Translations under genes and position numbers: made by a program
Shown: piece after piece, positions 43,815-61,898 of the stretch
Layout: every line of letters begins with the position of its first letter
Numbering within the stretch: position 1 is the first letter of the stretch
The notes under the pieces: generated by a model
What the model saw: only the letters and a program-made list of their open reading frames with translations
Databases searched by the model: none
What the model was told of the DNA's origin: nothing
Assembly (NCBI GenBank): GCA_030681615.1
Contig: JAUXSA010000016.1
Location: forward strand, 1-64,000
DNA: 64,000 bases
Reading direction: 5' to 3'
Source: Bacteroidota bacterium
Lineage (GTDB): Bacteria; Bacteroidota; Bacteroidia; B-17B0; Aurantibacillaceae

Positions 43815-43844
43815 TAAGTTTGATTTAATTTTTAATAATAAAAT

Positions 43845-44623: not shown

Positions 44624-44629
44624 TGCCTT

Positions 44630-45247
44630 TTATTTTTTTATTTCTGAGTGTGTAACCTTATAACCTGTAGAATTAATTGCTTTTTCAATTTCAGCAATGT
44701 TAGTTTCTGTAATATCAAATTGAACTTCTGCATTTGCATTTTCAAATGACGCTTCGGCTTTTATTATTCCATCAAGTTTATTGATTTCGTGCTTAACACT
44801 TTCCGTACAGGCTTCACAATCCATTCCACTGATTTTGAAAACAGAGATCTGAATATTGTTTTTATCAACAACAATAATTTGCTTTTCATTTTTCGGAAAG
44901 AATATGCTTGAGTAATAAGGAAATGCAAGCATCAACGCTGCAAACACCGTTACAATCAATAAAAACTTTTTAGATTGCAAGAAAGATGGTTTTTCATCCT
45001 CTTCGCAAGCACAATCAATTTCTTCTTTAGTTCGAGGTTTTAATTTCTGATACCAAGCAAATCCTAAAACGAGAACTGTTAATCCAATTAAATATGGTCT
45101 TGCAGGTTCAATCCACGAAAATGCAGAAGCAGCACCGCTTGCACCCGCAATCAAGGCTAAAACAGGCGTGATGCAACATAAGGAGGCAGCAATAGCGGAT
45201 ATAACTCCCGCACCCATTAATCCTTTAGACGTGTTTTTAGTTTTCAT
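44630..45247 (-). CDS. merT: Mercuric transport fusion protein MerTP
   Basis: A 205-residue membrane protein joining MerT and MerP. The MerT part has helix one with the mercury-binding vicinal pair, GAGVISAIAASLCCITPVLALIAG, then a second helix (PYLIGLTVLVLGFAWYQKLKP) and a Cys pair in the loop (EEIDCACEEDEK). A third helix leads to a periplasmic MerP-like HMA domain (ISVFKISGMDCEACTESVKHEINKLDGIIKAEASFENANAEVQFD). It takes up Hg2+ and hands it to MerA. It overlaps the arsR-type regulator gene by 11 bp. The fusion form is typical of Bacteroidota. Confidence 0.93.
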   Translation of the reverse strand: MKTKNTSKGLMGAGVISAIAASLCCITPVLALIAGASGAASAFSWIEPARPYLIGLTVLVLGFAWYQKLKPRTKEEIDCACEEDEKPSFLQSKKFLLIVTVFAALMLAFPYYSSIFFPKNEKQIIVVDKNNIQISVFKISGMDCEACTESVKHEINKLDGIIKAEASFENANAEVQFDITETNIAEIEKAINSTGYKVTHSEIKK

Positions 45248-45620
45248 CTGATTGCGTTTGTAAATTTTGCTTATTGATATACTTAAAGAAGGGTTTTAAT
45301 ATTTTTAAATGCTCCGCTTTCAATGAGTAATAAATGGTTTGACCAACTTTCCGAGTTACTACAACATTTCCATCCTTCAATTTTCTCAGATGCTGTGAAA
45401 TAGCAGGAATACTCATCCCAAGAATATCACTAATATCGCAAGGACAAAGTTCTTTTTCCTCTTCCATTAAATAAAGAATTTTTAATCGCACCTCATTCCC
45501 TGCAAGAGCAAGAACACCTGAAAGCTGCTCAAAGGATTTCTCATTGGCTTTGACCTTTGCTTTACATTCTTTAATCTGAATTGGGTCAGCTAAGACTCTT
45601 ATGCACGTATTGTTTTCCAT
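45237..45620 (-). CDS. ArsR/SmtB-family repressor of the mer operon
   Basis: A 127-residue winged-helix regulator: LSGVLALAGNEVRLKILYLMEEEKELCPCDISDILGMSIPAISQHLRKLKDGNVVVTRKVGQTIYYSLKAEHL. ELCPCDI is the alpha-3 metal site of ArsR-type sensors (family ELCVCD). In the N terminus, NTC and KEC could add thiol ligands. It is the first gene of the mer operon, replacing the MerR regulator used in Proteobacteria. A perfect palindrome over the -33 box upstream fits repression relieved by Hg2+. Confidence 0.9.
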   Translation of the reverse strand: MENNTCIRVLADPIQIKECKAKVKANEKSFEQLSGVLALAGNEVRLKILYLMEEEKELCPCDISDILGMSIPAISQHLRKLKDGNVVVTRKVGQTIYYSLKAEHLKILKPFFKYINKQNLQTQSDEN

Positions 45621-45642
45621 AGTTATTGTTTCAAGAACAGTA

Positions 45643-45684
45643 CAAATGTATTGATCTTTTCTTATTTAAGCAAATACTTAAATA
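45643..45684 (-). promoter_or_regulatory. mer promoter with ArsR-type operator over the -33 box
   Basis: TATTTAAG-N6-CTTAAATA (45663-45684) is a perfect 8-bp inverted repeat. On the minus strand its spacer contributes TTTG, which stands 20 bp before a perfect -7 box TACATTTG (45650-45643). The operator thus covers -33, and bound ArsR-type protein would block polymerase. The start codon is 22 bp after the -7 box. Confidence 0.8.
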
Positions 45685-45794
45685 TATTTAACTAAAGGCA
45701 CTTCCTTTACACTTTCAGCATTGTACATTTGGTATAAAATCAGTTCTAAGGCATATTATCCCGTTGCTGGCTGAGTCAGACAATCTATTTTCAC

Positions 45795-46595
45795 TTACCG
45801 TTTCCTTTTCCCTTCTACTAAAGACATTGTATAGTCTTTATAAGCGTCCTTAATGCTGTTAAATATCTTAGGTTCATAATCATTTTTTGACTTATGAATG
45901 CTTGATGAGTGGTTACTTTGCCAGTTTTTGCTTAAATCAATATCAAAAATATTTGCTAATGATTCCACAATTTTCGTTATTTCTCCCTTCCCATTATTTA
46001 TAAATCCGGAAGAGTGTAGTCCGTAAATTAGTTGAACAAATTCGTTTCTATTTTCTCTACTTCCTGTCCATTTAATTAAAGCAGAATTATTTATAGATGC
46101 CTGCGCAGCTTTTTCATTTTCAACCTGAATTTCTTTTGTTAATGAAGGTAGAATATCACTTTTAATGAATAGAACCCTTAAATTTTTCTCTATTTCCTTA
46201 AAAGCCAGAAATCGGATAAAAAAATGCTTTAGTTTATTTGGGTTCATCACAAATTCCCTCAGTTCCTTTTCTTCATCGCTGATATAAATCGGCAGAGATA
46301 CACCGTTCTCAACCTTTCTAAAATCTAACTCATCTTTGACGTCTTCGCCATAAACTTTGCGAATAAAAAGTAGGACTTCTTCTACGTTTTCTCCTCTTTT
46401 ATAATAGGTTACAAAAGTATCGACCATTTTCTCCTTGTGTTCACCTGCGACCTGTATTACATTTAAAAAGGCAAATTCTCTTTCAATTTCGCTCCGGACA
46501 AATTCTTTATCCTTTGCTTTATTGTACCGTTTTTCAATGTTGCGCTCAGCCATTACACTATAACGATTAAGCAATTCTTCAAATGTCTGTTTCAT
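45795..46595 (-). CDS. RteC-domain protein, divergent from the WYL regulator
   Basis: I choose ATG 46595 (266 residues). The frame extends 37 codons upstream, but that would run across the shared operator into the WYL gene. The C-terminal 95 residues match the RteC domain of Bacteroides conjugative transposons: LIKWTGSRENRNEFVQLIYGLHSSGFINNGKGEITKIVESLANIFDIDLSKN. The N-terminal part is charged and helical (KQTFEELLNRYSVMAERNIEKRYNKAKDKEFVRSEIEREFAFLN). RteC controls excision genes in CTnDOT-like elements. Here it faces a defence-type operon, which points to mobile-element ancestry or a regulatory role. Confidence 0.8.
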   Translation of the reverse strand: MKQTFEELLNRYSVMAERNIEKRYNKAKDKEFVRSEIEREFAFLNVIQVAGEHKEKMVDTFVTYYKRGENVEEVLLFIRKVYGEDVKDELDFRKVENGVSLPIYISDEEKELREFVMNPNKLKHFFIRFLAFKEIEKNLRVLFIKSDILPSLTKEIQVENEKAAQASINNSALIKWTGSRENRNEFVQLIYGLHSSGFINNGKGEITKIVESLANIFDIDLSKNWQSNHSSSIHKSKNDYEPKIFNSIKDAYKDYTMSLVEGKRKR

Positions 46596-46635
46596 AATCA
46601 ATTCTTTAGAGTTGGCACAAAATAACAAAAGGTCA

Positions 46636-46666
46636 TTGTCAATTTCCGTCAAAAGGTATATATTTA
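46636..46666. promoter_or_regulatory. Divergent control region: 17-bp WYL-associated operator and WYL promoter
   Basis: TTGTCAATTTCCGTCAA at 46636-46652 is the exact reverse complement of TTGACGGAAATTGACAA at 47583-47599. For the WYL gene, TTG at its edge and TATATTTA (46659-46666) form a near-consensus -33/-7 pair, so the operator lies between them. On the minus strand TTATTTTG begins 24 bp after the TTG of the element, giving the probable -7 of the RteC gene. Confidence 0.7.
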
Positions 46667-46682
46667 CTTTAAATACAGGCAC

Positions 46683-47582
46683 ATGAACGATCAGGCAAAA
46701 TTTCAAAGGATGTTGGAAATACTTATGAAGTTATCCGGCAGTTATGGATATAGTGTTAAACAACTTGCTGAAGATTTTGAATCATCCGAAAGAACTATAT
46801 ACAGGTACTTGACAACTTTTAAAAATGCTGGATTTCTATTAGATAATCACAATGGGTATTTTAAAATAGATAAAAAGTCTCCGGATTATAAAGACCTGAG
46901 TAAGCTAATTCATTTCTCGGAAGAAGAAGCACACGTCCTAAGCAAAGCAATTCATTTAATTGATGATGAAAGTAAATTCAAGAATGATTTGTATGAAAAA
47001 CTGTATGTCCTTTTCGATTCGGACAAGGCGGTAAATAAGATTGTGAGAAAGGAGAGTTCCGAGAATGTTATAAGTCTAAAAGGAGCAATTAAAAACAAGG
47101 AGCAGGTAATTTTTCATGGATATAGATCATCTAATAGCGATAATATCCGAGATCGGCTATTAGAGCCATTTGCCTTCACATCAAATTACAACTATGTGTG
47201 GTGTTACGATATCGAGGCTAAATCATCTAAAACTTTTAAAGTTGCCCGGATTAAAGAGGTAAAAATAACTGATAAGAAATGGAAGAATGAGAAGCTTCAT
47301 AAACGTAATGAAATTGATGTATTTAGGATTGGTGGGGAGAAAACTATTCCGGTAAAACTCACATTAAGCCTTATGGCTTATAATCTTTTACTAGAAGAAT
47401 ACCCTCTATCTGAAAAATTTTTAATGAAAAGCAAGGATAATAAGTACAAATTTGATGGATGGGTCTGTGATTTTAACGGTGTAGGGCGGTTTGTATTAGG
47501 TATGATAGATCAAGTAGAGATAATAAGTCCAAAAAGCTTAAAAGACTATTTAAACGGTAAAATAAAGAATAAACGATTTTAA
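46683..47582 (+). CDS. HTH-WYL transcriptional regulator of the defence operon
   Basis: A 299-residue protein. An N-terminal HTH_11-type winged helix (MNDQAKFQRMLEILMKLSGSYGYSVKQLAEDFESSERTIYRYLTTFKNAGFLL) is followed by a WYL domain (VIFHGYRSSNSDNIRDRLLEPFAFTSNYNYVWCYDIEAKSSKTFKVARIKEVKIT) and a WYL C-terminal extension. WYL proteins (BrxR, CapW and relatives) sense a nucleic-acid ligand or damage and often repress defence operons. Its stop codon is followed at once by one copy of the 17-bp element, and the other copy is in its own promoter, so it very probably binds that element. Confidence 0.88.
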   Translation: MNDQAKFQRMLEILMKLSGSYGYSVKQLAEDFESSERTIYRYLTTFKNAGFLLDNHNGYFKIDKKSPDYKDLSKLIHFSEEEAHVLSKAIHLIDDESKFKNDLYEKLYVLFDSDKAVNKIVRKESSENVISLKGAIKNKEQVIFHGYRSSNSDNIRDRLLEPFAFTSNYNYVWCYDIEAKSSKTFKVARIKEVKITDKKWKNEKLHKRNEIDVFRIGGEKTIPVKLTLSLMAYNLLLEEYPLSEKFLMKSKDNKYKFDGWVCDFNGVGRFVLGMIDQVEIISPKSLKDYLNGKIKNKRF

Positions 47583-47617
47583 TTGACGGAAATTGACAAA
47601 CAGCGGCTGTAATTTTG
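47583..47617 (+). promoter_or_regulatory. Operator and promoter of the SMC/nuclease operon
   Basis: TTGACGGAAATTGACAA (47583-47599) begins one base after the WYL stop codon. TAATTTTG (47610-47617) is a perfect TANNTTTG -7 box, 24 bp after the TTG of the element, the same distance and orientation as at the RteC promoter. The first ATG of the operon follows 17 bp later. Confidence 0.75.
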
Positions 47618-47633
47618 AACTTAGCAATAACGA

Positions 47634-48824
47634 ATGTTAACCTTTAACTCCATAAAAGAACTTATCAAAAGCTTGGATTGGTCAAAAGACCTTCTATCCG
47701 AGATGTTTGAGAAACGGAATTCCTTTTCATATAAATATGAAATGGCTCTGGAAATTTTGGAGGAAGACAGAATTGAAAAGCTAATCGAAAAAGAAGTTCT
47801 CCGGAGGAATGGTGCTTTTCTTGAGATAGATGAAAAATACCTCCAATTTTTTGAGTTGGTTTTAGAAGTCAACGAGCAAGTAAGCACAGCCTTTATTCAC
47901 GAAAATATCCAATATGTAAAAGAAAGCATCAATTACTATTTAAAGGAGAACGGCTCGGATAAGCAGTATTCTTATTTAAAAGTGATTAAATCCTCATTAC
48001 AAAAAATTGGAAGGATAACTCATCGAAGTATTATTGACCTTAATAGAAATATTGAAAACACATTTAAAACGGAACCCACCTATAAAGTAAAAATTGCAAA
48101 GCTTGAGAATTTTGACATCAAAAGAAAGGACATAGAATTTCTCATTCAACAAACTGAGAAATTAGTTACGGAAGAAGAACTTACTTTCTTTAAAGCTGCA
48201 TTGGACGAAGAGTTAAAACGGATTACTAATTCCTTGAGAATAAAGTTGAATGAAGGGAGACACAATTTAATTGAGACCCAAAAACAAATAATAAATTATT
48301 TAAATCAAATAAAATATCAAAGTGAGTTTATTGAGAAAATAAGGCAAATAAAATATTTAAGGGATCAATTTGAACTGAAGTCTAAAACTAATTTCTTAGA
48401 GGTTCTCTCTAATAACAACTCGGTTATTTTTGAACCAAAATCTTCATATCCGCTGAAATTATCGATAGATTACTTGCAAACAGATGAAGCCTATCAAAGT
48501 ATATTAAAAATAAGTAAAAAGTTTACCAATGGTCACAAAAATATAGCATTAGCAGAAGCAATAGAGGATTCTTATTTGGTAACCGAAACAGAAGAAGAAA
48601 TTTTTATCAATTTGGAAGAAGTGAAAAATGGCTTCATGGCTTCAGGCAATAATCTATATGACTTTGTACAGAGTTATCGTTTCCCTAAGGATGTTTCATT
48701 TGAGGAGCGGTTAACTTTTTTCTGTCAGATGATCTCACAATACGAAAGCGAGTTTAACATCGCTGATACATACAATAAGAAAAATGAAATAGAGTTCGTA
48801 ATGGTTTACCCCAAAAATAATTAA
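47634..48824 (+). CDS. Kleisin-like subunit of a Wadjet/Mks-type SMC complex (JetA/MksF position)
   Basis: A 396-residue, mostly helical protein, first gene of the operon. Residues 1-90 look like a winged-helix region (ALEILEEDRIEKLIEKEVLRRNGAFLEIDEKYLQFFELVLEVNEQVS). A long helical middle (IEFLIQQTEKLVTEEELTFFKAALDEELKRITNSLRIKLNEGRHNLIETQKQIINYLNQIKY) and a small C-terminal domain follow. This matches the MukF/MksF/JetA plan of N-terminal wHTH, middle helices and C-terminal wHTH that caps the SMC head. There is no diagnostic motif, so the call rests on architecture and on gene order before a MukE-like gene and an SMC ATPase. It is shorter than typical JetA (about 480). Confidence 0.6.
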   Translation: MLTFNSIKELIKSLDWSKDLLSEMFEKRNSFSYKYEMALEILEEDRIEKLIEKEVLRRNGAFLEIDEKYLQFFELVLEVNEQVSTAFIHENIQYVKESINYYLKENGSDKQYSYLKVIKSSLQKIGRITHRSIIDLNRNIENTFKTEPTYKVKIAKLENFDIKRKDIEFLIQQTEKLVTEEELTFFKAALDEELKRITNSLRIKLNEGRHNLIETQKQIINYLNQIKYQSEFIEKIRQIKYLRDQFELKSKTNFLEVLSNNNSVIFEPKSSYPLKLSIDYLQTDEAYQSILKISKKFTNGHKNIALAEAIEDSYLVTETEEEIFINLEEVKNGFMASGNNLYDFVQSYRFPKDVSFEERLTFFCQMISQYESEFNIADTYNKKNEIEFVMVYPKNN

Positions 48825-48826
48825 CT

Positions 48827-49396
48827 ATGAATATTCCTCAAACAGGTGAAATTTTTGAAATACTTAGCAAGGGTCAGTTTATTTCCTCCAATAGTGCTGA
48901 CCATAATTTGCGGAAGTTATATGATATTATAAATGATGAAAATAATTTTGAAGAACTGTGCGATTATTTTCATGCAATAAATTTTATCCTAGAGAGAGGC
49001 GATGAGTATTTCTTTTTCTCAAAATCTGAAATCAAAGCTGAACTTGATAGAAAAATTGAGATAGCATATAAATGGATTGATATTTTAGACTTTTTGAAAG
49101 CGTATGATAATTCTTTCGGCTCCAACTTTCGGTTTGACTACAGCCACATGGCAGGACAAATTGGTAGAGATGTAAACCTCAAGGATAAGTTAGAGGGATT
49201 AAGAAAATACACTGGTGAAGGAAGTTATTTAGAACGAATAAAAAACCTTGTTGGTCTACTTGTAAAGGAAGGATTTGTCGAGTTAGAAAATGAAATTACC
49301 AATCAATACAAAGTTGTTGCTTCTTTCGGATATATGGAAAGACTAGTGAATAGTATTAACATCCCAAATGAATTACAAAATGAGATACCTCAATAA
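48827..49396 (+). CDS. MukE/JetB-like subunit
   Basis: A 189-residue protein starting 2 bp after the kleisin-like gene. It has two winged-helix-like parts: PQTGEIFEILSKGQFISSNSADHNLRKLYDIINDENNFEELCDYFHAINFILERGDEYFFFSKSE, and YLERIKNLVGLLVKEGFVELENEITNQYKVVASFGYMERLVNSI. MukE, MksE and JetB are dimers of such tandem winged helices that bind the kleisin. The EYFFFSKSE strand pair resembles the wing seen in this family (for example GYFYL). Its end overlaps the SMC gene by 17 bp. Assignment is by size, fold pattern and order. Confidence 0.62.
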   Translation: MNIPQTGEIFEILSKGQFISSNSADHNLRKLYDIINDENNFEELCDYFHAINFILERGDEYFFFSKSEIKAELDRKIEIAYKWIDILDFLKAYDNSFGSNFRFDYSHMAGQIGRDVNLKDKLEGLRKYTGEGSYLERIKNLVGLLVKEGFVELENEITNQYKVVASFGYMERLVNSINIPNELQNEIPQ

Positions 49397-52300
49397 AATA
49401 GTATTTATAAATAGCGCCACAATTAAATATTCAGAAATATTTACAGGCGGTAACGTTCATTTAATAGGAACCCAAGGTGTTGGTAAGAGTACTATTTTAA
49501 GAGCCATCTTGTTTTTTTATAATGCGGATAGCCAAAAGCTAGGAATAAAGCCCGGCCAAAAAAGTTTTTCTGAATACTATTTTCCCTACCAAAATTCTTA
49601 TATCATATATGAAATAGTAAAAGAAACTGGCGTTTATTCTATTCTATGTTACAAATCTCAGGGTAAGGTTTGCTTTAGGTTTTTTGAAGGGGAGTATAAC
49701 AAAGACTATTTTATAAAAGACAACTATGCTTTTGAATCATGGGAACAGGTAAGCAATCAGCTTAATCAAAGCAAAATATATTATTCGAGAAAGATTGACC
49801 GTAACGAAGAATACCGGGATATACTATATGGTAATAATGAAGGTAAAAGCGAACTTAAAAAGTTTGCATTAATGGAAAGCAAGCAATATCAAAATATTCC
49901 TCGCACAATTCAAAATGTACTTTTAAACTCTGAACTCAAGGCTGAATTTATAAAGCAAACGATTATCCGATCTCTAGAAGATGAAGATATTGTTATAAGT
50001 TTAGAAGATTATCAGCATCATCTTACTGGATTTGAAAGTCAACTTTCAGACATAAGAAAATGGACAGAGAAAAACAAAAACGGTGAAATACCTGTAAAAA
50101 CACAATCTGAAAAAATAATTCAGTTAAGATCTGCCATTAAATTTTTAGAAAGAGAGAAAATAACACTGGCCAAGCAGTTGGCGTGGGCGATAAATTCAAT
50201 TGAAAAGAGTACACCTAAAATTCAGAAAAAATTAGAATCCCAGGAATTAAAGGAAGTACAAGTAAAAGTCAAGTTAACTGAACTTGATAGTAAATTTGAG
50301 TCCAAAAAAGAAAATATACAGAATGATATCAGTGTGTTTGATAATAAAATAAAGGAAGCAGAAACAAAAACACAGGAGTATAAAAAAATAAACATTGAAG
50401 CTATAATTGAAGCCGTTTCTAAAAAGGACACCTTATTGGTTGAACAAGGAAATCTTAATAAGGAAAAAGAAATATTGACTTCTAAGTACGCAGAAATAAC
50501 TCAAAAATATTCCATGTTGTTAACTGAGCTTCTAAATCAGTTAAAAAGTATAGAAACAGATTGTGAAAAGCAGAAATTGATGCTACAATCCAATTTTCTT
50601 TCCTTTAAGGAAAACACAACTAATCAATATGGCGATATCATTAAAGAAATCCGGAACAACAGTTTGTTGGCGTTGGACACTGCTAAAAACGCTGTTAACG
50701 AGAAGAAGGATCAATCTCAAGAGCTTCTAATAAAAAAGGCAGAAATTAATCATAAGCGGTTTTATGAAAATGAAATAGAGCAATTAAAAACAACTCTTCA
50801 AAAATTAAAAAACGATAAGATAAATGCTGAAAGCCAAGTTAAATTCAACAATGAACAAATAAAAACATTCCAAACGCAATGGGAGACTGAAGAAAACGGA
50901 AAAAAAGAAAGCCATAATCTAAAACTGGAAAAATTGAACGATTCTGTATTAAATATACAGAACGAAGTGAATTCGATTGAAACAAAAATTATGAACAGCA
51001 AGGATTCATTTTATGGTTGGCTAAATGAAAAGTATCCAAATTGGGAAAACACAATAGGAAAAGTATGCACGGATGATATACTCTTCCATAATGAACTTTC
51101 CCCGGAAATAATAAACTCGAAGGAATTAAACTTTTTTGGAGTTAAGATAGATTTACGAGAAATAACCAAAAAAGTAAAAACAGTTGCCGATTACGAAAAA
51201 GATAAGGAAGAACTAAATGGGCAAATAGAATTACAAAAAAAACAAATACTTGCAGCCAGTGAAACTTTGGAATCTGAAATAATTAAATTAAAAACGAAGT
51301 ATCAGCCTAAGATAAAAGCAAGCAAGGATTTAATAAATGAGTACAATTATACAATTGAAACTAACACCGCCAAAACAGAAGAGGCGACTAACACGCTGAA
51401 CGATCTAACTCAAAAAGCTGTTAATGAGAAACAAAGTTTACTGAAGGAAATACAAAAACAAATAGATCAACTGTCAGAAGAAATAATAGTAGCAGGAAAG
51501 AAGCTTAAAGCATTGGAAGAGCAAATTTCTATTGAGGAGAAGGCAAAACAAGCGGAAAAAGACAACCTGATACTGGAAGAAGAAAAAAAGACTATTGGAG
51601 CCAAGGCTGAAATCGATACAACTTTTAAAACAAAAAAAACCGAGCATTCACAGCGAGAATTAGAGATAAAGGAGAAGCAAAAAAAGGAACTTTCCGATAA
51701 AGGCGCAAATACCTCTAGGATCGCAGAAATTGATAAACAATTAGAAAAGTTAAAAGCGAAACTTGAGTATATAGAAAATAATTGGGATAAGGTTGTAGAA
51801 TACAAAAAGGACAAAAGAGAATTATTTGATAAAGAGGAAGAGTTCAAAATTAAAAAGAAGAGTTTACAAGAGCAGCTTATTAATGAACAGCAAAAACACA
51901 CGCAACAGAAGGGATCATTATTTACTGAACTCACTGAGCTTACACGAATAATTTCAGAAATAAAGAAAATTCTGGAAGATTATGAGGCAGATTTAAATGA
52001 GCTGGATTTGTTTAAGAGCAGGAATTCTGAAAGCTATTCTGACCTTAACATTTATCTTTCAGACCCAAAGGAGGAAAATGCAGTCAATAAACCCGGTCGG
52101 GAACTAATCCGTGAATTGGAACAAAAAGATTATTCGCGAAAAGATCGTTTGGGTGAAATGAAAGAAACAATAAATAAGTTCTTGGGTAATTTTTCGGAAA
52201 AGAACATTTTTAATTTTAAAATTATTTTGATTGATTCAATAGAATATGTTCAGTTTGCGGATGAACTAAATGATTTCATTGAAGAAAGAAAAATAGAACA

Positions 52301-53051
52301 GTTTGAAAAAAGAATAAATGAACGCTTTGCTTCTATAATCACGTCCATAGGCAAGGAAACTGGTAGTTTAATGTCCAAAGGAGGAGAAATTCAAAAGGTA
52401 ATTCATAGTATTAATAAGGATTTTGAACAAAGAAATTTTGTTGGGGCGATCAAAAAAATAGAATTACAATGGGATAATAGTAGCAACCCTGTTGTGAGTA
52501 TATTGCTCGCTATAAAAAAATTTAATGATGAAAATATAAATGAATTAGGTACTCCAAACTTATTTTCCGGGAATGACCAAGGTTCAAAAAACAAAACGGC
52601 TGTTGATCTGCTTAAAGAACTAATTAAACAAATTACAACTTTTGGAAAGAAAACCATCTCGCTTTCAGATTCCTTTGAATTAAAGTTCAGGATTCAGGAA
52701 AATCAAAACGATACCGGATGGGTAGAGAAGCTCGCAAATGTAGGAAGTGATGGCACGGACATTCTTGTTAAAGCCATGATAAATATTATGCTCTTGAATG
52801 TGTTTAAAGATGGAGCATCCAAGAGGTTTAAAGATTTCAGGTTACACTGTGTTATGGATGAAATAGGCAAGCTTCATCCTAACAATATCAAAGGGATATT
52901 AAAATTTGCTAATGATCGTAATATTCTTTTGGTCAATGGTTCTCCAACGGAAAATAATGCAATTGATTACAAACACATTTATAAACTTGAAAAGGATGAA
53001 AAAAGCTTTTCTAAAATAAAAAGAATTATTACTAATCACGCTTTAGCATGA
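49380..53051 (+). CDS. SMC-like ATPase, JetC/MksB type
   Basis: From ATG 49380 the protein has 1223 residues (an in-frame ATG at 49368 is possible). The head opens MRYLNKIVFINSATIKYSEIFTGGNVHLIGTQGVGKSTILRAILFFYN, with Walker A at about 30-38. Two long coiled coils (roughly 230-530 and 610-980) flank a globular middle at about 541-605 (FYGWLNEKYPNWENTIGKVCTDDILFHNEL ... NFFGVKIDLREI), the hinge position. The C-terminal head has the signature region VGSDGTDILVKAMINIMLLNVF near 1120-1140 and Walker B LHCVMDEIGKL (Asp1160, Glu1161). This is the plan of MukB/MksB/JetC. In Wadjet such ATPases extrude loops of circular plasmid DNA. Confidence 0.85.
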   Translation: MRYLNKIVFINSATIKYSEIFTGGNVHLIGTQGVGKSTILRAILFFYNADSQKLGIKPGQKSFSEYYFPYQNSYIIYEIVKETGVYSILCYKSQGKVCFRFFEGEYNKDYFIKDNYAFESWEQVSNQLNQSKIYYSRKIDRNEEYRDILYGNNEGKSELKKFALMESKQYQNIPRTIQNVLLNSELKAEFIKQTIIRSLEDEDIVISLEDYQHHLTGFESQLSDIRKWTEKNKNGEIPVKTQSEKIIQLRSAIKFLEREKITLAKQLAWAINSIEKSTPKIQKKLESQELKEVQVKVKLTELDSKFESKKENIQNDISVFDNKIKEAETKTQEYKKINIEAIIEAVSKKDTLLVEQGNLNKEKEILTSKYAEITQKYSMLLTELLNQLKSIETDCEKQKLMLQSNFLSFKENTTNQYGDIIKEIRNNSLLALDTAKNAVNEKKDQSQELLIKKAEINHKRFYENEIEQLKTTLQKLKNDKINAESQVKFNNEQIKTFQTQWETEENGKKESHNLKLEKLNDSVLNIQNEVNSIETKIMNSKDSFYGWLNEKYPNWENTIGKVCTDDILFHNELSPEIINSKELNFFGVKIDLREITKKVKTVADYEKDKEELNGQIELQKKQILAASETLESEIIKLKTKYQPKIKASKDLINEYNYTIETNTAKTEEATNTLNDLTQKAVNEKQSLLKEIQKQIDQLSEEIIVAGKKLKALEEQISIEEKAKQAEKDNLILEEEKKTIGAKAEIDTTFKTKKTEHSQRELEIKEKQKKELSDKGANTSRIAEIDKQLEKLKAKLEYIENNWDKVVEYKKDKRELFDKEEEFKIKKKSLQEQLINEQQKHTQQKGSLFTELTELTRIISEIKKILEDYEADLNELDLFKSRNSESYSDLNIYLSDPKEENAVNKPGRELIRELEQKDYSRKDRLGEMKETINKFLGNFSEKNIFNFKIILIDSIEYVQFADELNDFIEERKIEQFEKRINERFASIITSIGKETGSLMSKGGEIQKVIHSINKDFEQRNFVGAIKKIELQWDNSSNPVVSILLAIKKFNDENINELGTPNLFSGNDQGSKNKTAVDLLKELIKQITTFGKKTISLSDSFELKFRIQENQNDTGWVEKLANVGSDGTDILVKAMINIMLLNVFKDGASKRFKDFRLHCVMDEIGKLHPNNIKGILKFANDRNILLVNGSPTENNAIDYKHIYKLEKDEKSFSKIKRIITNHALA

Positions 53052-53902
53052 GTTTACCATTGAACATAGCGGAAAAATTAAAACAGATGCTTGATAAGGT
53101 AGAAATACCATCAAGTAAACTCAAACATGATGTAATAACCGGCCTAATTGAGGATGGTGTAATACAAGTTAGAAATATTGGTAAAAGTCAACGAATGTAT
53201 TATGTAAATAAGCCGGAAAGTTTAACAGCATACATTGAGAATCACTTTGGAATTTCCAGTTTAGAAAATTATATTGAGTATCAAAAAAATGATACAGGAA
53301 CAAGAAATGAATCAGTTTTAATAAGTTCGGATTCCAAGTTAAAGCAGGTTAGGACATTTAAAGGATTTCTAGTTAATTGTTATCAACCAATTGATGCGCT
53401 TCTTTTTGAAAAGCCATTTATAATTAATCCTTTAGAAGGAACATACACTTTTATATATGATTATGAGCATTTTAAAGTTCCGGCCAACGTAACAATTGTC
53501 GGAATTGAAAACCCGGAAAACTTTAAAGAAATTAAAAAGCAGAAGTCCTTATTCAATAATGTTTCTCCCCTGTTCGTGTCTCGATATCCGCAAAATAAAG
53601 ACTTAGTAAAGTGGTTAGGAAAGATTCCCAATAAATATTTGCACTTTGGAGATTTCGACTTTGAGGGGGTTAACATTTATCTTAATGAATATAAAAAGCA
53701 CTTGAATGAAAAAGCCTCATTTTTTATTCCGGATCATATTGAAAGTTTATTAAAAACTAACGGAAATAGAGAATTATATAATAGGCAACTTGAAAGAAGG
53801 CCTGACGAAAAACAAATTACAGAAAAAGAAATTATAAAGTTAATTGCACTTATTGACAAATATAAAAAGGGATTAGAACAGGAAATATTTATTAATAACT
53901 AA
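53048..53902 (+). CDS. Toprim-domain nuclease-like subunit, JetD/MksG position
   Basis: A 284-residue protein overlapping the SMC gene by 4 bp. The N-terminal 70 residues form a winged helix (EKLKQMLDKVEIPSSKLKHDVITGLIEDGVIQVRNIGKSQRMYYV). The C-terminal half is Toprim-like: VTIVGIENPENFKEI, with Glu154 as the lone acidic residue of strand one, and KYLHFGDFDFEGVNIYLNEY, with Asp202, Asp204 and Glu206 as the DxD-type motif. The same E...DxD pattern is used by topoisomerase VI A and by JetD/MksG, which cuts the plasmid. JetD is usually about 390 residues, so this one is short. The full set of acidic residues suggests it is active. Confidence 0.68.
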   Translation: MSLPLNIAEKLKQMLDKVEIPSSKLKHDVITGLIEDGVIQVRNIGKSQRMYYVNKPESLTAYIENHFGISSLENYIEYQKNDTGTRNESVLISSDSKLKQVRTFKGFLVNCYQPIDALLFEKPFIINPLEGTYTFIYDYEHFKVPANVTIVGIENPENFKEIKKQKSLFNNVSPLFVSRYPQNKDLVKWLGKIPNKYLHFGDFDFEGVNIYLNEYKKHLNEKASFFIPDHIESLLKTNGNRELYNRQLERRPDEKQITEKEIIKLIALIDKYKKGLEQEIFINN

Positions 53903-53905
53903 GCA

Positions 53906-54997
53906 ATGGGAAAGTTAGCCAAAGGTAAAAAAGTGATTAAAGCTGTTACCAAAACCGCAAAAAATCTTCGTCAGGCAAAGCCAAAGACTGTTGTTGTAAA
54001 GAAGATCGCTACAAAGAAATTTCCTGCGCCATCAACCTTAAAAAGTATTGACTATTCTAAATTCGGCTATGATGAGAGAAAATACCAAAAGCATTTTAAA
54101 GGAATAAAACTTGAGAAATATTTATACGGTCAAGAGGTCAAGAATAAAGAAGGATCATTTTATTTAATTACAAATACCGAACAAATTGATTTCCCTGTTG
54201 TAAATAAAGAATCAGCTAAAAACAAATTGTACGCTGAGCTTACCCTAATTGATGGAATAGCAAGATTAAAGGAAAAAGAATTAAAAATTTTCGGTTATAA
54301 TAAGATCGAAGATTTATTGAGCCACCATAAATTTCAATTTAAAGCCAAGGAGCTTTTATCATTTATAGATAACCATGATGGGCATTCAATTCATAAATGG
54401 GTAAGGCGAAGAAATGATTATCCTAAATACAATACTACCGGATTTTCAGTTTCAAGTTTTTTTAATCCTGAAGATTTTATTGTGATTGATTTGGAAACAT
54501 TAGGTTTCAATAGCCCGGCATTTCTTATTGGAATTGGTTACATGAGAAACGGGAAATTTAATGTAGACCAACTATTAGCTAGAGATTTAGATGAGGAGGG
54601 TGCAATTTTCTCGCACCTTAAAGAGTATCTGAAAGGTAAAAACGCTTTGCTTACCTATAATGGAGCTTCTTTTGATGTGCCTCTAATTAAGTCAAGGGCA
54701 AATTCTCTAGGAATAGACCTTCTAATAGATCATGCCCATTTTGACATGTATTATTTTTGCAAACGGGCTTTTGATGGTGTTTGTTATGATTACAAATTAA
54801 AAACATTAGAAAGCGAAATATTGGGACATCATAGAAGAGGAGATGTTCCTGGATTTCTTGTCCCGTCTTTTTATAGTGCATACATGTCAACTGGCAATAT
54901 TGGTACTGTTATTCCAATCATAGACCATAATAAACAAGATATTATTACAACATTTAAATTATTTGAATACCTACACTTAAAAGAAGTTAGTTTTTAA
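53906..54997 (+). CDS. RNase H-fold 3'-5' exonuclease (YprB/RNase_H_2 type)
   Basis: A 363-residue protein 3 bp after the Toprim gene. Residues 1-50 are very basic (MGKLAKGKKVIKAVTKTAKN ... VVVKKIATKKFPAP), suited to DNA binding. Residues 50-180 are helical. Residues 188-360 are a DEDD-type nuclease: FIVIDLETLGFNSPAFLIGIGY (Asp195, Glu197), LLTYNGASFDVPLIKSRANSLG (Asp257) and IDHNKQDIITTFKLFEYL (Asp345, with the nearby His). This is the YprB-like RNase_H_2 pattern. It is not a normal Wadjet component. It probably degrades ends made by the Toprim subunit, which is inference. Confidence 0.82.
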   Translation: MGKLAKGKKVIKAVTKTAKNLRQAKPKTVVVKKIATKKFPAPSTLKSIDYSKFGYDERKYQKHFKGIKLEKYLYGQEVKNKEGSFYLITNTEQIDFPVVNKESAKNKLYAELTLIDGIARLKEKELKIFGYNKIEDLLSHHKFQFKAKELLSFIDNHDGHSIHKWVRRRNDYPKYNTTGFSVSSFFNPEDFIVIDLETLGFNSPAFLIGIGYMRNGKFNVDQLLARDLDEEGAIFSHLKEYLKGKNALLTYNGASFDVPLIKSRANSLGIDLLIDHAHFDMYYFCKRAFDGVCYDYKLKTLESEILGHHRRGDVPGFLVPSFYSAYMSTGNIGTVIPIIDHNKQDIITTFKLFEYLHLKEVSF

Positions 54998-54998
54998 T

Positions 54999-56225
54999 AT
55001 GGAAGAAAATAAGCAATATAGGCTGTCAGAACTTATTTCATTTGTGAAAGGTATTCTTGATGCTAACCTGAATACATATTTTTATGTTATTGGTGAAATA
55101 TCTAATTATAACGGAATCGAGCCCAACAAACATCTATATCCCCGCTTAATTGAAAGGAAGAATGGAGTGACAACTGCGGAAATAAAGACGTGTATTTTTA
55201 GAGGAAGCGTTTATCAGTTAACCGAATTTGAGAGAAAAACCGGAATTAAATTTGAAAACGGAATTGAAGTTTTATTAAAAGTGAAAGTCGAGTTGCATCC
55301 GATTTATGGTCTTTCCTTAATAATGAATTCTATCGATCATAATTATACTCTTGGTAAAATTCAGGATGAGAAGCTTAAGACATTGATAAGGCTTGAAAAA
55401 GAAAAAATTATTAGACTAATTGAACCGGGCGTTTACGAAACTCATAATAAAAAATTAGATCGTCCGTCTGTTATACAAAGAATTGCCCTAATTTCTTCCG
55501 TAAATACAAAAGGCTATACCGATTTTAAAGCAGCCCTTCTTGAAAATAAATACGGGTATAAATTTACTGTAACCGATTTTCCTGCTATGATGCAAGGAAA
55601 TGAAGCGGCTAAATCAATGTTGAGTCAACTTCAAACAATAGATAAGCGACAGGAAGAATATGATGCAGTTGCCATTATTCGTGGTGGTGGAGATGATACC
55701 GGATTTATTTGTTTTGATGATTATGAATTGAGCAAAGCCGTTGCCAATTATAAATTACCAATTATAACTGGCATTGGTCACGAACAAAATAAAAGTATTG
55801 TCGATATGATGGCAAATATTTTCACTATGGTTCCTGCTATGGCAGCGAAAAGCATTATTGAACATAACAAAGAGTTTGAAAATTCTATTATAGAATTAGG
55901 ACATCAAATTGCAAATGCAAGCAAGGAAGTCATTGATTCCGAAAGGCATGACTTAGTGGAATTAGATGGGCAACTTAAGCATGGATTTAAACTTCTTATC
56001 CAAAACGAAAAGGATACCTTAAACCAATTGATTCGAGATGTTAAGAATTTTAGTCCGGAAAACACTTTGGCTCGTGGATATGCTATAATCACCTTTGAAG
56101 GAAGCATTTTGAATGACACTAAGCAATTAAAATCCGGCAACAAAATAAAAACAATAACTAGTTCAAGTATTATTGAAAGTAACATAACCAAAATTGAAAA
56201 AAGAAATGGCAACGCTAACTTATAA
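54999..56225 (+). CDS. Exodeoxyribonuclease VII large subunit, divergent
   Basis: A 408-residue XseA homologue, 1 bp after the exonuclease gene. It has an N-terminal OB fold (YRLSELISFVKGILDANLNTYFYVIGEISNYNG ... CIFRGSVYQL ... GIEVLLKVKVELHPIYGLSLIMNSIDHNYTLGKI), then the catalytic domain and a coiled coil. Active-site elements seen are Asp175 (NTKGYTDFKAAL), Arg228 (AIIRGGGDDTGFICFDD) and His261 in GIGHEQNKSIVDMMAN. The family motif is GHExD; here Asp is Asn264. The usual RAPTPSAAAE is FTMVPAMAAKS. E. coli XseA has 456 residues. It may be an altered or specialised ExoVII, working with the XseB gene that overlaps it. Confidence 0.88.
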   Translation: MEENKQYRLSELISFVKGILDANLNTYFYVIGEISNYNGIEPNKHLYPRLIERKNGVTTAEIKTCIFRGSVYQLTEFERKTGIKFENGIEVLLKVKVELHPIYGLSLIMNSIDHNYTLGKIQDEKLKTLIRLEKEKIIRLIEPGVYETHNKKLDRPSVIQRIALISSVNTKGYTDFKAALLENKYGYKFTVTDFPAMMQGNEAAKSMLSQLQTIDKRQEEYDAVAIIRGGGDDTGFICFDDYELSKAVANYKLPIITGIGHEQNKSIVDMMANIFTMVPAMAAKSIIEHNKEFENSIIELGHQIANASKEVIDSERHDLVELDGQLKHGFKLLIQNEKDTLNQLIRDVKNFSPENTLARGYAIITFEGSILNDTKQLKSGNKIKTITSSSIIESNITKIEKRNGNANL

Positions 56226-56394
56226 AAAGGCTTCAGAAGAACTGCAAAAAATAGTTTCGGATATTGAAGATGGAAAAGTATCAATAGACAATCTATATGC
56301 TAAACTTGAAAGAGCAAAGGAGCTGATTGAAATTTGTCAATCTAAACTTAAGCAAACCGATGGCGAAGTGAAAAAATTACTTGCTAAAAAGTAA
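56206..56394 (+). CDS. xseB: Exodeoxyribonuclease VII small subunit
   Basis: A 62-residue protein from ATG 56206, overlapping xseA by 20 bp; four more codons upstream are in frame. MATLTYKKASEELQKIVSDIEDGKVSIDNLYAKLERAKELIEICQSKLKQTDGEVKKLLAKK fits XseB: two helices with the ELExIVxxLExGxxSLDxxLxxxExGxxLxxxCxxxLxxAExxVxxL pattern. XseB helices wrap the coiled coil of XseA to form the active ExoVII. Having both subunits inside a defence-type operon indicates a dedicated enzyme separate from the housekeeping one. Confidence 0.88.
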   Translation: MATLTYKKASEELQKIVSDIEDGKVSIDNLYAKLERAKELIEICQSKLKQTDGEVKKLLAKK

Positions 56395-57666: not shown

Positions 57667-59247
57667 ATGGCATATAAAATAGACGAAATAATAGCTCCCT
57701 TTTGGGCGGAGAGTGGAGGAATATCTAGAGGGCGTGATCCCTTGGCAATCCAAAATAGTTCTGTTGCAACTTATGTTAAACTTCTTCCGGGGCTTACTAA
57801 TGTTACAACTCGATTACGCTATTATGGTTTCTATCTTTGGGTTATAGAAGAGTTTACAAAAAATAAATTCATTAAAAATAATGATAATTATGATGAGCAA
57901 ATAAAATTTATAAGGAGATCAGAACTAATATTAGCATTTATTACTCGTATAAATTTTGATAAAGTAAATGGAATTAGCGGAAGTTTATATGCTAGCCAAC
58001 AAATTAAAATTGGTGATGCCTCTTCGTTTTATGATATTGCTTATGGAGCTGATCGAGGAAGAACAAATACATACTGGGGTCTAAGTACTGGGGCGTTTGG
58101 CCAGTATTACATTGGAGTATTAAAATTTCTCCATTTGATTAACGAACCAACTGACTTCACCGATTATAATATTTATTTAAACTCAAGTAAAGGAAGAAAA
58201 CTTGCTGAAGAATTTGATAAAAATATTCCTGCAAAACAGAAAGAACTATTCTTTCAATCAGTTATTAATGGAAAGCTTAATAAAAATGAAATTCCCGAAT
58301 TTCAAAATTTTTCACTTGCAGAAATACCATATAACACAGGTGAATGGAAGTTTTATATAGAAATGGTTCTAAATAAGGATGACATTAGTGAGTACGATGC
58401 GTTTAATCACACTTTCCGAAAACAAACCGTCAAGTTATTCTTGCAATATATTAAAGACTCCCCCGAAAAGAGTAATCGAGAAGAATTTTTAAACTATCTC
58501 TATAATAGAAGAACGATTGAGGATTTAGAGAATAATAAAGCGTTTACCGGATGGTATTATTATAAGGTTAATGAGTTAATGCATGATGCTTATGAAACTA
58601 TTTTCTGTTCCTTTCTTTTCAAGTTAGAAGAACAAAAATTTTCGGTTGACCTTAAATGGCTAATTTCAGAATTGAAAAAGGATACTTTTAGATTCATTAA
58701 AGAGGAATTTGCGATTAAAAATCCGGAAGCTTTCCTTTTCAAAGAACTAATAACGTTGTTAAAGAAAACTGAAACCGGAACATTACAAGAACAGGCCACA
58801 GAAGGATATAACGAGGGTAACTATGGAAAATCAATTTCATATAGTTTGCATCTTATAATTGCAGTGTATGAGGAAAATAAAATCAATTTAAATCGACTTT
58901 ATGATTTCGCTTTAAAAAACAATGTTGAGCGTAACGGCTACATAAAACAATTAGTAGAAGAGTTAATTCTTTTGAAAAAGGAACTTACGCTTGATGAATA
59001 CTTGGATTTTATTCTTTACAAAGCTATTAACGACCATATTTATTCTTCCTTTCAAAAATTTAATATAGGACAGGCGGAGGTTCAAACATTTTTAATGGAA
59101 GATAGCCATGTCAGGTTTCTTCGTGAGATCAATCCCAGTCCGACAACTCCACGGATACAAATATTGCACAGTTTTTTGATAGATTTAAAATTAATTGATG
59201 GCAATAAGCTTACCCCAATTGGATCTGAAATACTCAATCAGCTATGA
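57667..59247 (+). CDS. Unknown 526-aa protein coupled to the PLD nuclease
   Basis: I do not recognise this family with certainty. It opens AYKIDEIIAPFWAESGGISRGRDPLAIQNSSVATYVKLLPGLTNVTTRLRYYGFYLWVIEEFTKN. The segment PGLTNVTTRLRYYGFYLW, an R-x-R-Y-Y motif near the N terminus, recalls DUF6361-like defence proteins, but this is only a resemblance. The middle is helical, with LLQYIKDSPEKSNREEFLNYL. The end, VRFLREINPSPTTPRIQILHSFLIDLKLIDGNKLTPIGSEILNQL, looks like a winged helix. Its stop overlaps the start of the PLD gene by 4 bp (ATGA), so the two products are made together and probably form a complex. Confidence 0.6.
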   Translation: MAYKIDEIIAPFWAESGGISRGRDPLAIQNSSVATYVKLLPGLTNVTTRLRYYGFYLWVIEEFTKNKFIKNNDNYDEQIKFIRRSELILAFITRINFDKVNGISGSLYASQQIKIGDASSFYDIAYGADRGRTNTYWGLSTGAFGQYYIGVLKFLHLINEPTDFTDYNIYLNSSKGRKLAEEFDKNIPAKQKELFFQSVINGKLNKNEIPEFQNFSLAEIPYNTGEWKFYIEMVLNKDDISEYDAFNHTFRKQTVKLFLQYIKDSPEKSNREEFLNYLYNRRTIEDLENNKAFTGWYYYKVNELMHDAYETIFCSFLFKLEEQKFSVDLKWLISELKKDTFRFIKEEFAIKNPEAFLFKELITLLKKTETGTLQEQATEGYNEGNYGKSISYSLHLIIAVYEENKINLNRLYDFALKNNVERNGYIKQLVEELILLKKELTLDEYLDFILYKAINDHIYSSFQKFNIGQAEVQTFLMEDSHVRFLREINPSPTTPRIQILHSFLIDLKLIDGNKLTPIGSEILNQL

Positions 59248-61898
59248 TAACAAAAAAATTATTTCCGGAAATTCCTGGTGGAGGTAAGTTTCATTCTGCT
59301 GTGCTTACCACTTATTCCTTAAATTTTTATTATTTGGAGGAGCAAATAGTACGATTACTGCATAGCAAGGAAATTTATAATATCTCTGTTCTTGCTGATT
59401 CTCAAATGTTGAATGATCAATTAGGAAAACTTACTCATAAAACAACTCCAAAGAACAGAAGCTATACACTGAATGGAATTAAATCGACAGGCGCTTTCCA
59501 TCCTAAGGTAAATTTATTCGTTGGCGATAATAGTGCGCTTATTTTAATTGGTTCCGGTAATTTAACAACCTCCGGTCACGGAAAAAATCATGAGGTTTGG
59601 AATTCGATCTATATCAATTCAAAGGACGACCCTAAGATTGAGTTATTACATCAAGTGTGGAGTTATCTGAGTTTCCTTAATAAACAGCTATTTGGAATAG
59701 CGAAAAATAAATTTGATCTAATAAAAAGTCATTGTAATTTATTAAAGGATGCGACTCTTCAGGTCGATTGGTCAGAAGTGAAAATAGATGAAGATTTATG
59801 GATGCAATTAATTGCTGACAATGATAATAAATCCATTTACCAACAACTGGTAGCAGTCTTGAATAAAGATGTTATTAATCAAGCAACAATTCTTGCGCCA
59901 TTCTATGACATAGATGGTCGACTTGTGTCCACGTTACAAAAGGACTTAGGTGATCCTTCCTTTAACCTAATTTTACAGAATCACTACGGACAGTTACCTA
60001 TTCGAATACCAAAAAACAATGTGAAGTTTTATGACTGGCGAGATGTATTTGAAAATAACAGAAAAGATTCGGTTGTTCATGCTAAAGTGTTTTATTTTGA
60101 AGGTGAAAAATTTAATTACTGCTTAATAGGAAGTGCCAACGCATCTCTAGCAGCTTTCGGAACCTCGAAGCAAAGAGGAAATAATTCAGAATGCTGTTTT
60201 CTTTTTAAAAAGCCAAAAGAAAATTTTTTACAAGCACTTGGAATTAACCTTGGTAATAAAACAAAATCAATTTCCGATTTTGAAGTAGGATTTCAAAATG
60301 AAGAACATGTCATATTGGAGGGAAGAAATTATTTTTTTATTATTTCAATTGACAAACATTTTAATGGTCTGGAATTATTTTTAAAAGAGTGCACTAAAAG
60401 CGGAGAATTTATTTTAGGCATTCACAATGCAGCAGGTGATTTCATAGAAAAAATTGAAATACAAATACAAAAAGAAAAAAACTCTTATTTCATTCCTAAA
60501 AACAATCTTTGGAAGGAGGATTTGTTTCATTTTGTTTCTTTGTATGAAGGTGAAGCGAAAAACCTTGAGATATGTTCAAATAAACAATTGATGCAGGATG
60601 TGGAACTCATAAGTAACACTAATCCCTCCATAGAAAGCAGAAAATTTAATGCTTTAATAAGAACAATAGAAAATGGACTATACAATCCTATAGAAATAAT
60701 TGACTATCTCAATACAATTCAATCTGAAACATTCAAAGATTCCTCTTCCTTATCTAAAGCTTCCCTTATTTATAAGGATAATAAAAGTAAAGTAGATGAA
60801 ATTCTAAACATTTCTCATAAAAGTTATGAGGAGTTTGTTGCACTGTCTGAAACAAATGATTTACATCGACATTCTAAGGCGTATTCACAGCATCACTTAG
60901 TTAAAATGTGGGACTCGGTTCTTCTATCACTAACAAAAAGCATTGATGCTCAAGAAGCTGCTCAAATCGATGAAGAAGAATTGGAAAAAGTTGACGAGTC
61001 ATCCGGAAGAAACATTGATGAAAAATTACAACTTCCGGATTCTTACTCAGGAAAGCAATTTGATAGATTTCAAAATCAATTGTTTAAATTTCTCAATAGA
61101 TATAACGAATCGATTTACTTTGAGAATTATATGGAAAATATAAATGGAGTTCCTAAATTGTCTTTGGTTGATCTTGCTATGTTTTTAGTTGCGCTCCAAT
61201 TGTTAATTGATTTGGGGGACAAGGGCTTCAGAATTAATGAAGGAGAGGGCGAAGACGAAGTTGTCAAAATTATTCCTGCCAAGATACAGGTTAAAGGAGA
61301 TGAAAGCTTTAGCAGTTATTGTTTGGAGTTTCTTGGCCGATTCCTTCTATTGGTTTCTAGGAGTGGTGGTTTCTCAGAATCCGATGATCATTATTACAAT
61401 GAAAAATTAAAGTTTTATAAATCACTTGTTTACAAAAAAGGAGTTTCATCACTTGCACTTCTTAAGGAAATTAATAATGAACGGGATTCAATATTTACAT
61501 TGTTGGATGTTGTTGGACTAAATTTGCAAAAGTATTTTGGTGATGTCGGAACCACAATTAATAATCGTGATTTAGATACTTTGCTCGCTAATTCGAGTTT
61601 TAACGTCCTGACGAAAGAAAGGTTAATCCATCATGTACGAAACTTTGAAACTGATAGTAAAGAAATGTGCAATAACGATCAAATTTTAAACGATAAGGGT
61701 TATTGTATTTTGGCAGAAGATGGATTTGCCGGGATATTTAATACTTTACCTAGAAATAAGGAATATATAAGATTAGCTCACCCTGGATATGAATATAACG
61801 AAGATTTGAAGGATTATGTGAACCCCAAATACTACAATATAAAATCTCAAAAATGGCTAGAGAGTGTTCAGTCATATAAAAAGAATCTTTATACTTAG
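59244..61898 (+). CDS. Large phospholipase D-type nuclease, two HKD motifs
   Basis: An 884-residue protein. The first HKD-type motif is GAFHPKVNLFVGDNSALILIGSGNLTTSGHGKNHE (His86, Lys88, Asn106, Glu117). The second is SVVHAKVFYFEGEKFNYCLIGSANASLAAFGTSKQRGNNSE (His279, Lys281). Both are complete H-x-K ... G-S-x-N ... E forms, as in PLD-superfamily nucleases that join helicases in defence systems. The remaining 550 residues are helical and unassigned, with a very acidic patch (AAQIDEEELEKVDESSGRN). There is no helicase motif. It is coupled to the 526-residue protein, and DNA or RNA cleavage is the likely activity. Confidence 0.82.
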   Translation: MITKKLFPEIPGGGKFHSAVLTTYSLNFYYLEEQIVRLLHSKEIYNISVLADSQMLNDQLGKLTHKTTPKNRSYTLNGIKSTGAFHPKVNLFVGDNSALILIGSGNLTTSGHGKNHEVWNSIYINSKDDPKIELLHQVWSYLSFLNKQLFGIAKNKFDLIKSHCNLLKDATLQVDWSEVKIDEDLWMQLIADNDNKSIYQQLVAVLNKDVINQATILAPFYDIDGRLVSTLQKDLGDPSFNLILQNHYGQLPIRIPKNNVKFYDWRDVFENNRKDSVVHAKVFYFEGEKFNYCLIGSANASLAAFGTSKQRGNNSECCFLFKKPKENFLQALGINLGNKTKSISDFEVGFQNEEHVILEGRNYFFIISIDKHFNGLELFLKECTKSGEFILGIHNAAGDFIEKIEIQIQKEKNSYFIPKNNLWKEDLFHFVSLYEGEAKNLEICSNKQLMQDVELISNTNPSIESRKFNALIRTIENGLYNPIEIIDYLNTIQSETFKDSSSLSKASLIYKDNKSKVDEILNISHKSYEEFVALSETNDLHRHSKAYSQHHLVKMWDSVLLSLTKSIDAQEAAQIDEEELEKVDESSGRNIDEKLQLPDSYSGKQFDRFQNQLFKFLNRYNESIYFENYMENINGVPKLSLVDLAMFLVALQLLIDLGDKGFRINEGEGEDEVVKIIPAKIQVKGDESFSSYCLEFLGRFLLLVSRSGGFSESDDHYYNEKLKFYKSLVYKKGVSSLALLKEINNERDSIFTLLDVVGLNLQKYFGDVGTTINNRDLDTLLANSSFNVLTKERLIHHVRNFETDSKEMCNNDQILNDKGYCILAEDGFAGIFNTLPRNKEYIRLAHPGYEYNEDLKDYVNPKYYNIKSQKWLESVQSYKKNLYT

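What the first reader, a model, noticed from the sequence alone, without database searches (positions are those of the whole stretch)
54999..56394. Exonuclease VII recruited into the operon, with Asn in place of the GHExD Asp
XseA and XseB are normally housekeeping genes elsewhere on the chromosome. Here both subunits are in the defence operon, next to an RNase H-fold exonuclease. The large subunit has GHEQN (Asn264) where the family has GHExD, and FTMVPAMAAK where it has RAPTPSAAAE. The other expected catalytic residues (Asp175, Arg228, His261) remain. This could change metal use or substrate, or make a binding-only subunit.
Basis: partly seen in the sequence, partly recalled or inferred. Interest (0 to 1): 0.65.

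Follow-up and report, generated by a model that had tools for sequence, protein, structure and literature searches.

The report
Wadjet-like operon with swappable exonuclease cassette
A bacterial operon that probably cuts foreign circular DNA carries its own exonuclease VII and a second exonuclease; the odd Asn is ordinary for this bacterial group, but a nearly identical operon carries a different DNA-end nuclease in the same slot, which suggests an exchangeable clean-up module.

Summary
The genes are real: XseA (408 aa) and XseB end a tight co-directional run, WYL-JetA-MksE-SMC-JetD-RNaseH2-XseA-XseB. XseA has GHEQN (N264) and keeps D175, R228 and H261.

This is the only xseAB in the genome, and most genomes of its order have none. 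Among 135 XseA, site 264 is Asp in 71 and Asn in 64; Asn follows phylogeny and is the state of the sole xseA in Pedobacter, Flavobacterium, Spirosoma and Chitinophaga genomes. The second oddity (T-P-T/S changed to V-P-A) is lineage-specific.

The stronger finding is modularity. A genome of another family carries the same WYL-JetABCD at 97% DNA identity, but directly after JetD it has SbcCD instead of RNaseH2-XseAB. A more distant operon has RmuC downstream. A phylogenetically separate RNaseH2-XseAB follows another WYL gene in two relatives, once leading into a type I Wadjet.

I infer that JetABCD linearises circular DNA and the cassette degrades the ends. Purifying selection on xseA (dN/dS 0.08) argues against decay. 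Defence function and enzyme activity are untested.

The parts
46683..47582 (+). WYL-domain transcriptional regulator, first gene of the run
   Evidence: PF13280 4.7e-6 over cut-off; 99% and 90% and 81% identical copies head three different SMC loci in G300
47634..48824 (+). JetA/MksF-like subunit (kleisin position)
   Evidence: position and length; no family match above cut-off; conserved as an operon partner in relatives
48827..49396 (+). MksE (KITE) subunit
   Evidence: PF21980 3.4e-36
49368..53051 (+). SMC/MksB-like ATPase
   Evidence: PF12128 DUF3584 1.9e-60
53048..53902 (+). JetD/MksG-like TOPRIM nuclease
   Evidence: PF23947 DUF7281 8.8e-8 over cut-off, PF09983 JetD_C below cut-off; GDFDFEG with D202 and D204
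53894..53906 (+). junction where the 97% identity with the G300 operon ends and its SbcCD begins
   Evidence: blastn of window against L107
53906..54997 (+). RNase H-fold DEDD-type exonuclease, first gene of the cassette
   Evidence: PF13482 1.4e-31; D195, E197, D257, D345 kept in both cassette lineages
54999..56225 (+). XseA, exonuclease VII large subunit, with N264 and VPA loop
   Evidence: TIGR00237 2.6e-66; D175, R228, H261 kept; model matches PDB 8txr
56203..56394 (+). XseB, exonuclease VII small subunit, overlapping xseA by 23 bases
   Evidence: TIGR01280 7.3e-14; identity with G052 ends here

Best explanation
The locus is a Wadjet-like (MksBEFG-type) system with an exchangeable DNA-end-nuclease cassette. 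Proposed steps: (1) the JetA/MksE/SMC motor loads on DNA and senses small circles (inferred from Wadjet/MksBEFG); (2) the JetD/MksG-like nuclease opens the circle (inferred); (3) the cassette, here a DEDD-type RNase H-fold exonuclease and exonuclease VII, degrades the ends and single strands so that the cut cannot be reversed (inferred). Shown by sequence: one tight gene run; catalytic residues kept in all three nucleases; purifying selection; horizontal movement of the block; exchange of the cassette against SbcCD directly after JetD; a separate RNaseH2-XseAB unit beside another WYL gene and, once, a type I Wadjet. Asn264 is an inherited Bacteroidota state and needs no special explanation.
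For: Gaps within the run are 51, 2, -29, -4, 3, 1 and -23 bases. Identity with G052 (94% DNA, another genus) ends at the XseB stop, while housekeeping MksB of the two genomes is 77% identical. G300 (another family) has the same WYL-JetABCD at 96.9%, ending in the last codons of JetD, then SbcD and SbcC. A second SbcCD in G300 follows a different SMC/JetD-like core behind a 90% identical WYL. G120 has RmuC downstream of a related core. A second RNaseH2-XseAB precedes a type I Wadjet in G047. AU test rejects one clade for the two XseA lineages, p 0.00135. dN/dS is 0.084 for XseA, 0.022 for XseB, 0.20 for RNaseH2.
Against: No experiment links the cassette to the core. The exchanges seen are few (SbcCD twice in one genome, RmuC once and 120 bp away behind a Bro-N gene). 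Several complete relatives have nothing or unknown genes after JetD, so the cassette is not essential. In G300 an unrelated ABC-3C system follows SbcCD, so the region after JetD also takes other defence genes. PADLOC does not recognise the core as Wadjet. No enrichment test was done.
Confidence: 0.5

Rival explanations
1. Defence-island neighbours: RNaseH2-XseAB and SbcCD are independent units that landed after JetD and act on their own, for example as stand-alone anti-phage or repair nucleases, without sharing work with JetABCD.
For: The B-type cassette has its own WYL gene and an unknown 382-aa gene; the region after JetD also receives an ABC-3C system and unknown genes; other likely defence genes follow in the window.
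Against: Spacing of 3, 1 and -23 bases with no intervening promoter-like excess or terminator; identity with G052 ends at the XseB stop; the replaced segment in G300 begins directly at JetD and is again a DNA-end nuclease.
Confidence: 0.33
2. The XseA of this operon is a binding-only or altered-activity subunit, because of its active-site changes.
For: V278-P-A280 replaces a T-P-T/S that is kept in 130-133 of 135 XseA, and the branch is long.
Against: D175, R228 and H261 are kept; Asn264 is shared with sole-copy xseA of many genera; the B-type cassette XseA keeps KTPT; dN/dS 0.084.
Confidence: 0.11
3. It is the lineage's ordinary housekeeping ExoVII that has moved into the operon by chance.
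For: It is the only xseA and xseB in a 97.8% complete assembly.
Against: 74 of 87 genomes of the order have no xseA match at all, so there was probably no resident copy to move; the operon XseA does not group with the chromosomal XseA of relatives; the block moves between genera.
Confidence: 0.06

Closest known systems
Wadjet type I / MksBEFG plasmid-defence system (JetABCD; reviewed in PMC10586767; C. glutamicum MksBEFG in PMC10123090)
   Same: Gene order kleisin-KITE-SMC-TOPRIM nuclease; MksE domain; JetD-like nuclease with DxD
   Different: JetA lacks DUF3375, PADLOC Wadjet models give only E about 1e-4 on SMC and JetD, and none of the four-gene systems described there carries exonuclease VII or SbcCD
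Exonuclease VII (XseA-XseB; E. coli ExoVII H238A, PDB 8txr)
   Same: Both subunits, OB-fold domain, conserved D/R/H, predicted fold
   Different: N264 as in many Bacteroidota, V-P-A loop, short coiled coil (75 residues between two fixed prolines against 97-163 in most compared relatives, 75 in Spirosoma), encoded in an SMC operon
SbcCD (Mre11-Rad50) after the same JetABCD in G300
   Same: Occupies the same slot directly after JetD
   Different: Unrelated enzyme; by established knowledge acts on double-strand ends and hairpins, where ExoVII acts on single strands
RmuC after a related core in G120
   Same: Putative DNA-recombination nuclease downstream of JetD, only RmuC of that genome
   Different: 120 bp gap and a Bro-N gene between JetD and RmuC; biochemical role unknown

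Membership tests
Exonuclease VII (XseA/XseB) | large subunit passes the xseA equivalog cut-off | tested here: met
   TIGR00237 224.4 bits, cut-off 180
Exonuclease VII (XseA/XseB) | small subunit encoded next to it | tested here: met
   TIGR01280 51.6 bits, cut-off 35; 23-base overlap
Exonuclease VII (XseA/XseB) | catalytic Asp, Arg and His (E. coli H238 position and partners) | tested here: met
   D175, R228, H261 in the alignment of 135
Exonuclease VII (XseA/XseB) | Asp at the GHExD site | tested here: not met
   N264; but Asn occurs in 64 of 135 XseA, so Asp is not a defining feature in Bacteroidota
Exonuclease VII (XseA/XseB) | single-strand exonuclease activity | not testable with these tools
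   needs purified protein
Wadjet (PADLOC types I-III) | PADLOC JetA, JetB, JetC and JetD models all matched | tested here: not met
   only weak partial matches to JetC (6.5e-5) and JetD (1e-4), none to JetA or JetB
MksBEFG-like SMC defence system | operon of MksF/JetA-like, MksE, SMC ATPase and MksG/JetD-like nuclease | tested here: met
   MksE 3.4e-36, DUF3584 1.9e-60, DUF7281 over cut-off; JetA by position only
MksBEFG-like SMC defence system | restriction of small circular DNA | not testable with these tools
   needs a plasmid assay

The most novel reading that the evidence does not exclude
Wadjet-like SMC defence operons of Bacteroidota have a true effector slot: a conserved motor-and-cutter core is combined with interchangeable DNA-end degradation modules (ExoVII plus a DEDD exonuclease, SbcCD, RmuC) that act together with the core so that a cut circle is destroyed at once, and the XseA here is a dedicated ExoVII with a remodelled active-site loop.
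Probability: 0.3. Interest if true: 0.75.

Novelty: new variant of a known kind. Interest (0 to 1): 0.5.

Why it matters
What clears the linear DNA after Wadjet cuts a circle is not addressed in the papers I could read. A core that stays nearly identical while ExoVII or SbcCD is swapped behind it gives natural pairs for testing whether a dedicated end-nuclease makes restriction stronger or irreversible. The work also removes a tempting but wrong marker: Asn at the GHExD site does not signal a dead or repurposed ExoVII in Bacteroidota.

Tried and rejected
Asn264 as the mark of an SMC-tied clade: rejected. A second canonical xseAB in the genome: none. The two cassette XseA as one clade: rejected by AU test. 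Cassette on plasmids or viral contigs: the only plasmid match to the window RNase H2 is a Geobacillus protein of unknown function; the haloarchaeal matches to the B-type RNase H2 that were opened have no annotated xseA beside them; the 382-aa protein had no plasmid match; no viral relatives. JetA relatives in viral contigs: none. The plasmid xseA that were opened (Bacteroides, Acinetobacter, Pseudomonas, Chryseobacterium) have no SMC genes annotated near. XseA beside MksE or DUF3375 in 395 genomes of the class: comparing the listed places by eye, none besides window and G052 (the XseA list was cut at the weak end). RNase H2-like genes in 345 genomes of the phylum: four weak matches besides the window, surroundings not examined. 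Literature on Wadjet with exonuclease VII, RmuC or SbcCD in one operon: nothing on point. No open paper on the ExoVII active site was found.

Full report
Observation. The coordinates are right. XseA is 54999-56225 (+) and XseB 56203-56394 (+). XseA scores 224 bits on TIGR00237 (cut-off 180) and XseB 51.6 on TIGR01280 (cut-off 35). D175, R228, H261, N264 and FTMVPAMAAK are present as described. A predicted model (pLDDT 89.5) has E. coli ExoVII(H238A), PDB 8txr, as its best structural match, E 1.2e-24; whole-chain TM-scores are low (0.34-0.51), presumably because the domains lie differently along the coiled coil.

Setting. The run is WYL regulator 46683, JetA-like 47634, MksE 48827, SMC 49368, JetD-like 53048, RNase_H_2 protein 53906, XseA, XseB. 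Gaps are 51, 2, -29, -4, 3, 1 and -23 bases. The core is Wadjet/MksBEFG-like by domains and order, but PADLOC's Wadjet models do not recognise it. A more distant JetA-like gene occurs in most genomes of the order (75 of 87); the window genome has such a MksE-SMC pair on contig C153 without a JetD-like gene beside it, which I read as the housekeeping condensin. The gene upstream, 45795-46706, is RteC-like (PF09357, 1.4e-12), a regulator known from Bacteroides conjugative transposons, and beyond it lies a mercury-resistance-like cluster, so the setting looks like a mobile island.

Asn264. First, xseA and xseB occur once in the genome, here; in the whole order only 13 of 87 genomes have any XseA match. 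Second, in an alignment of 135 XseA the site is Asp in 71 and Asn in 64, while D175, R228 and H261 do not vary apart from one gap. Ninety-odd of these came from a scan whose patterns include GIGH and RGG, so the invariance of H261 and R228 is partly by construction there; the 39 taken from a profile search that did not use the motif (chosen by hand for spread over families) also keep all three, and 13 of them have Asn. On a tree of 119 XseA the Asp/Asn label needs 4 changes, against 39.8 when shuffled. Asn-bearing xseA is the only full-length copy in 16 of 16 genomes checked, among them Pedobacter, Flavobacterium, Spirosoma, Chitinophaga and Sphingobacterium, and in Spirosoma it follows what reads as pheS. 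Asn264 is therefore an inherited state, not a sign of recruitment or inactivation.

The other oddity. T278 is present in 130 of 135 XseA and T or S at 280 in 133, whereas the window lineage has V278 and A280, and Met at 277 in place of the usual Lys. The second operon-linked XseA lineage keeps KTPT. The change is thus specific to the window's lineage, whose branch is long. dN/dS between window and G052 is 0.084 for XseA and 0.022 for XseB, so the genes are under purifying selection. An altered enzyme is possible; a decaying one is unlikely.

Cassette exchange. G052 (another genus) holds the same unit at 94% DNA identity, and the identity ends at the XseB stop; the housekeeping MksB genes of the two genomes are 77% identical, so the block has moved horizontally. 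G300 (another family) holds WYL-JetA-MksE-SMC-JetD at 96.9% over window 46255-53894. The match stops in the last codons of JetD and the next genes are SbcD and SbcC, then an ABC-3C system. G300 carries a second SbcCD, behind a different SMC/JetD-like core that follows a WYL gene 90% identical to the window's, and a third SMC core behind an 81% identical WYL without SbcCD. In G120 a related core (46-54% identity) is followed at 120 bp by a Bro-N gene and then RmuC, the only RmuC of that genome. G047 and G040 have another RNaseH2-XseA-XseB (36% identity in XseA, 26% in RNase H2) behind a different WYL gene and an unknown 382-386-aa gene; in G047 it leads into a typical type I Wadjet, and in G040 into a WYL gene like the window's at the contig end, so what follows there is unknown. 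The AU test rejects a single clade for the two XseA lineages (p 0.00135). Other complete relatives of the core have nothing directly in the slot (L102, L104, L147, L148, L149, L219) or unknown genes (L101).

Mechanism. Shown: gene order, tight spacing, kept catalytic residues, purifying selection, horizontal movement of the block, and exchange of the segment after JetD. From the literature on Wadjet/MksBEFG (PMC10586767, PMC10123090): such cores cut circular and not linear DNA. Inferred here: RNase H2 and ExoVII remove the ends and single strands left by the cut, and SbcCD or RmuC does the equivalent in relatives, making the cut irreversible. That the swapped neighbours belong to different families but share a DNA-end or repair-nuclease role is the main argument; the number of exchanges seen is small.

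Limits. Co-location of XseA with SMC genes in the class sample was judged by eye from listed coordinates, and that list was cut at the weak end. No enrichment statistic for nucleases in the slot was computed. There is no biochemical or genetic evidence.

Noticed in passing
window 42171-46706 (-): RteC-like gene (conjugative-transposon regulator family) directly upstream and divergent from the defence run, then ArsR-type regulator, MerT-HMA fusion and a MerA-like reductase with an HMA domain, with a P-type metal ATPase further on (37374-39773): a mercury/metal-resistance island beside the defence operon.
   Followed up: partly
window 59244-61898 (+): 884-aa phospholipase D-like protein with weak matches to defence models ZacB, PDC-M27B and DrmC, preceded by unknown 402- and 526-aa proteins and followed by an unknown 577-aa protein; may be a second defence system.
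   Followed up: no
L222 2965-13496 and L224 5507-12849: Two further SMC/MksE/JetD-like operons in genome G300, each headed by a WYL gene 81-90% identical to the window's, hardly recognised by Pfam or PADLOC: possibly uncatalogued Wadjet-like types.
   Followed up: partly
L004 11758-12906 and L003 3391-4551: Unknown 382-386-aa protein between the WYL gene and RNase H2 of the second cassette, with no Pfam or PADLOC match.
   Followed up: no
L005 14082-14325: The SMC gene of the G052 copy is split into two ORFs (551 and 594 aa), so that copy of the core may be broken or mis-sequenced.
   Followed up: no
L153 1462-2490: G014 has only a truncated window-type JetA (342 aa) next to a MutS-like gene, which looks like a remnant of a lost operon.
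   Followed up: no
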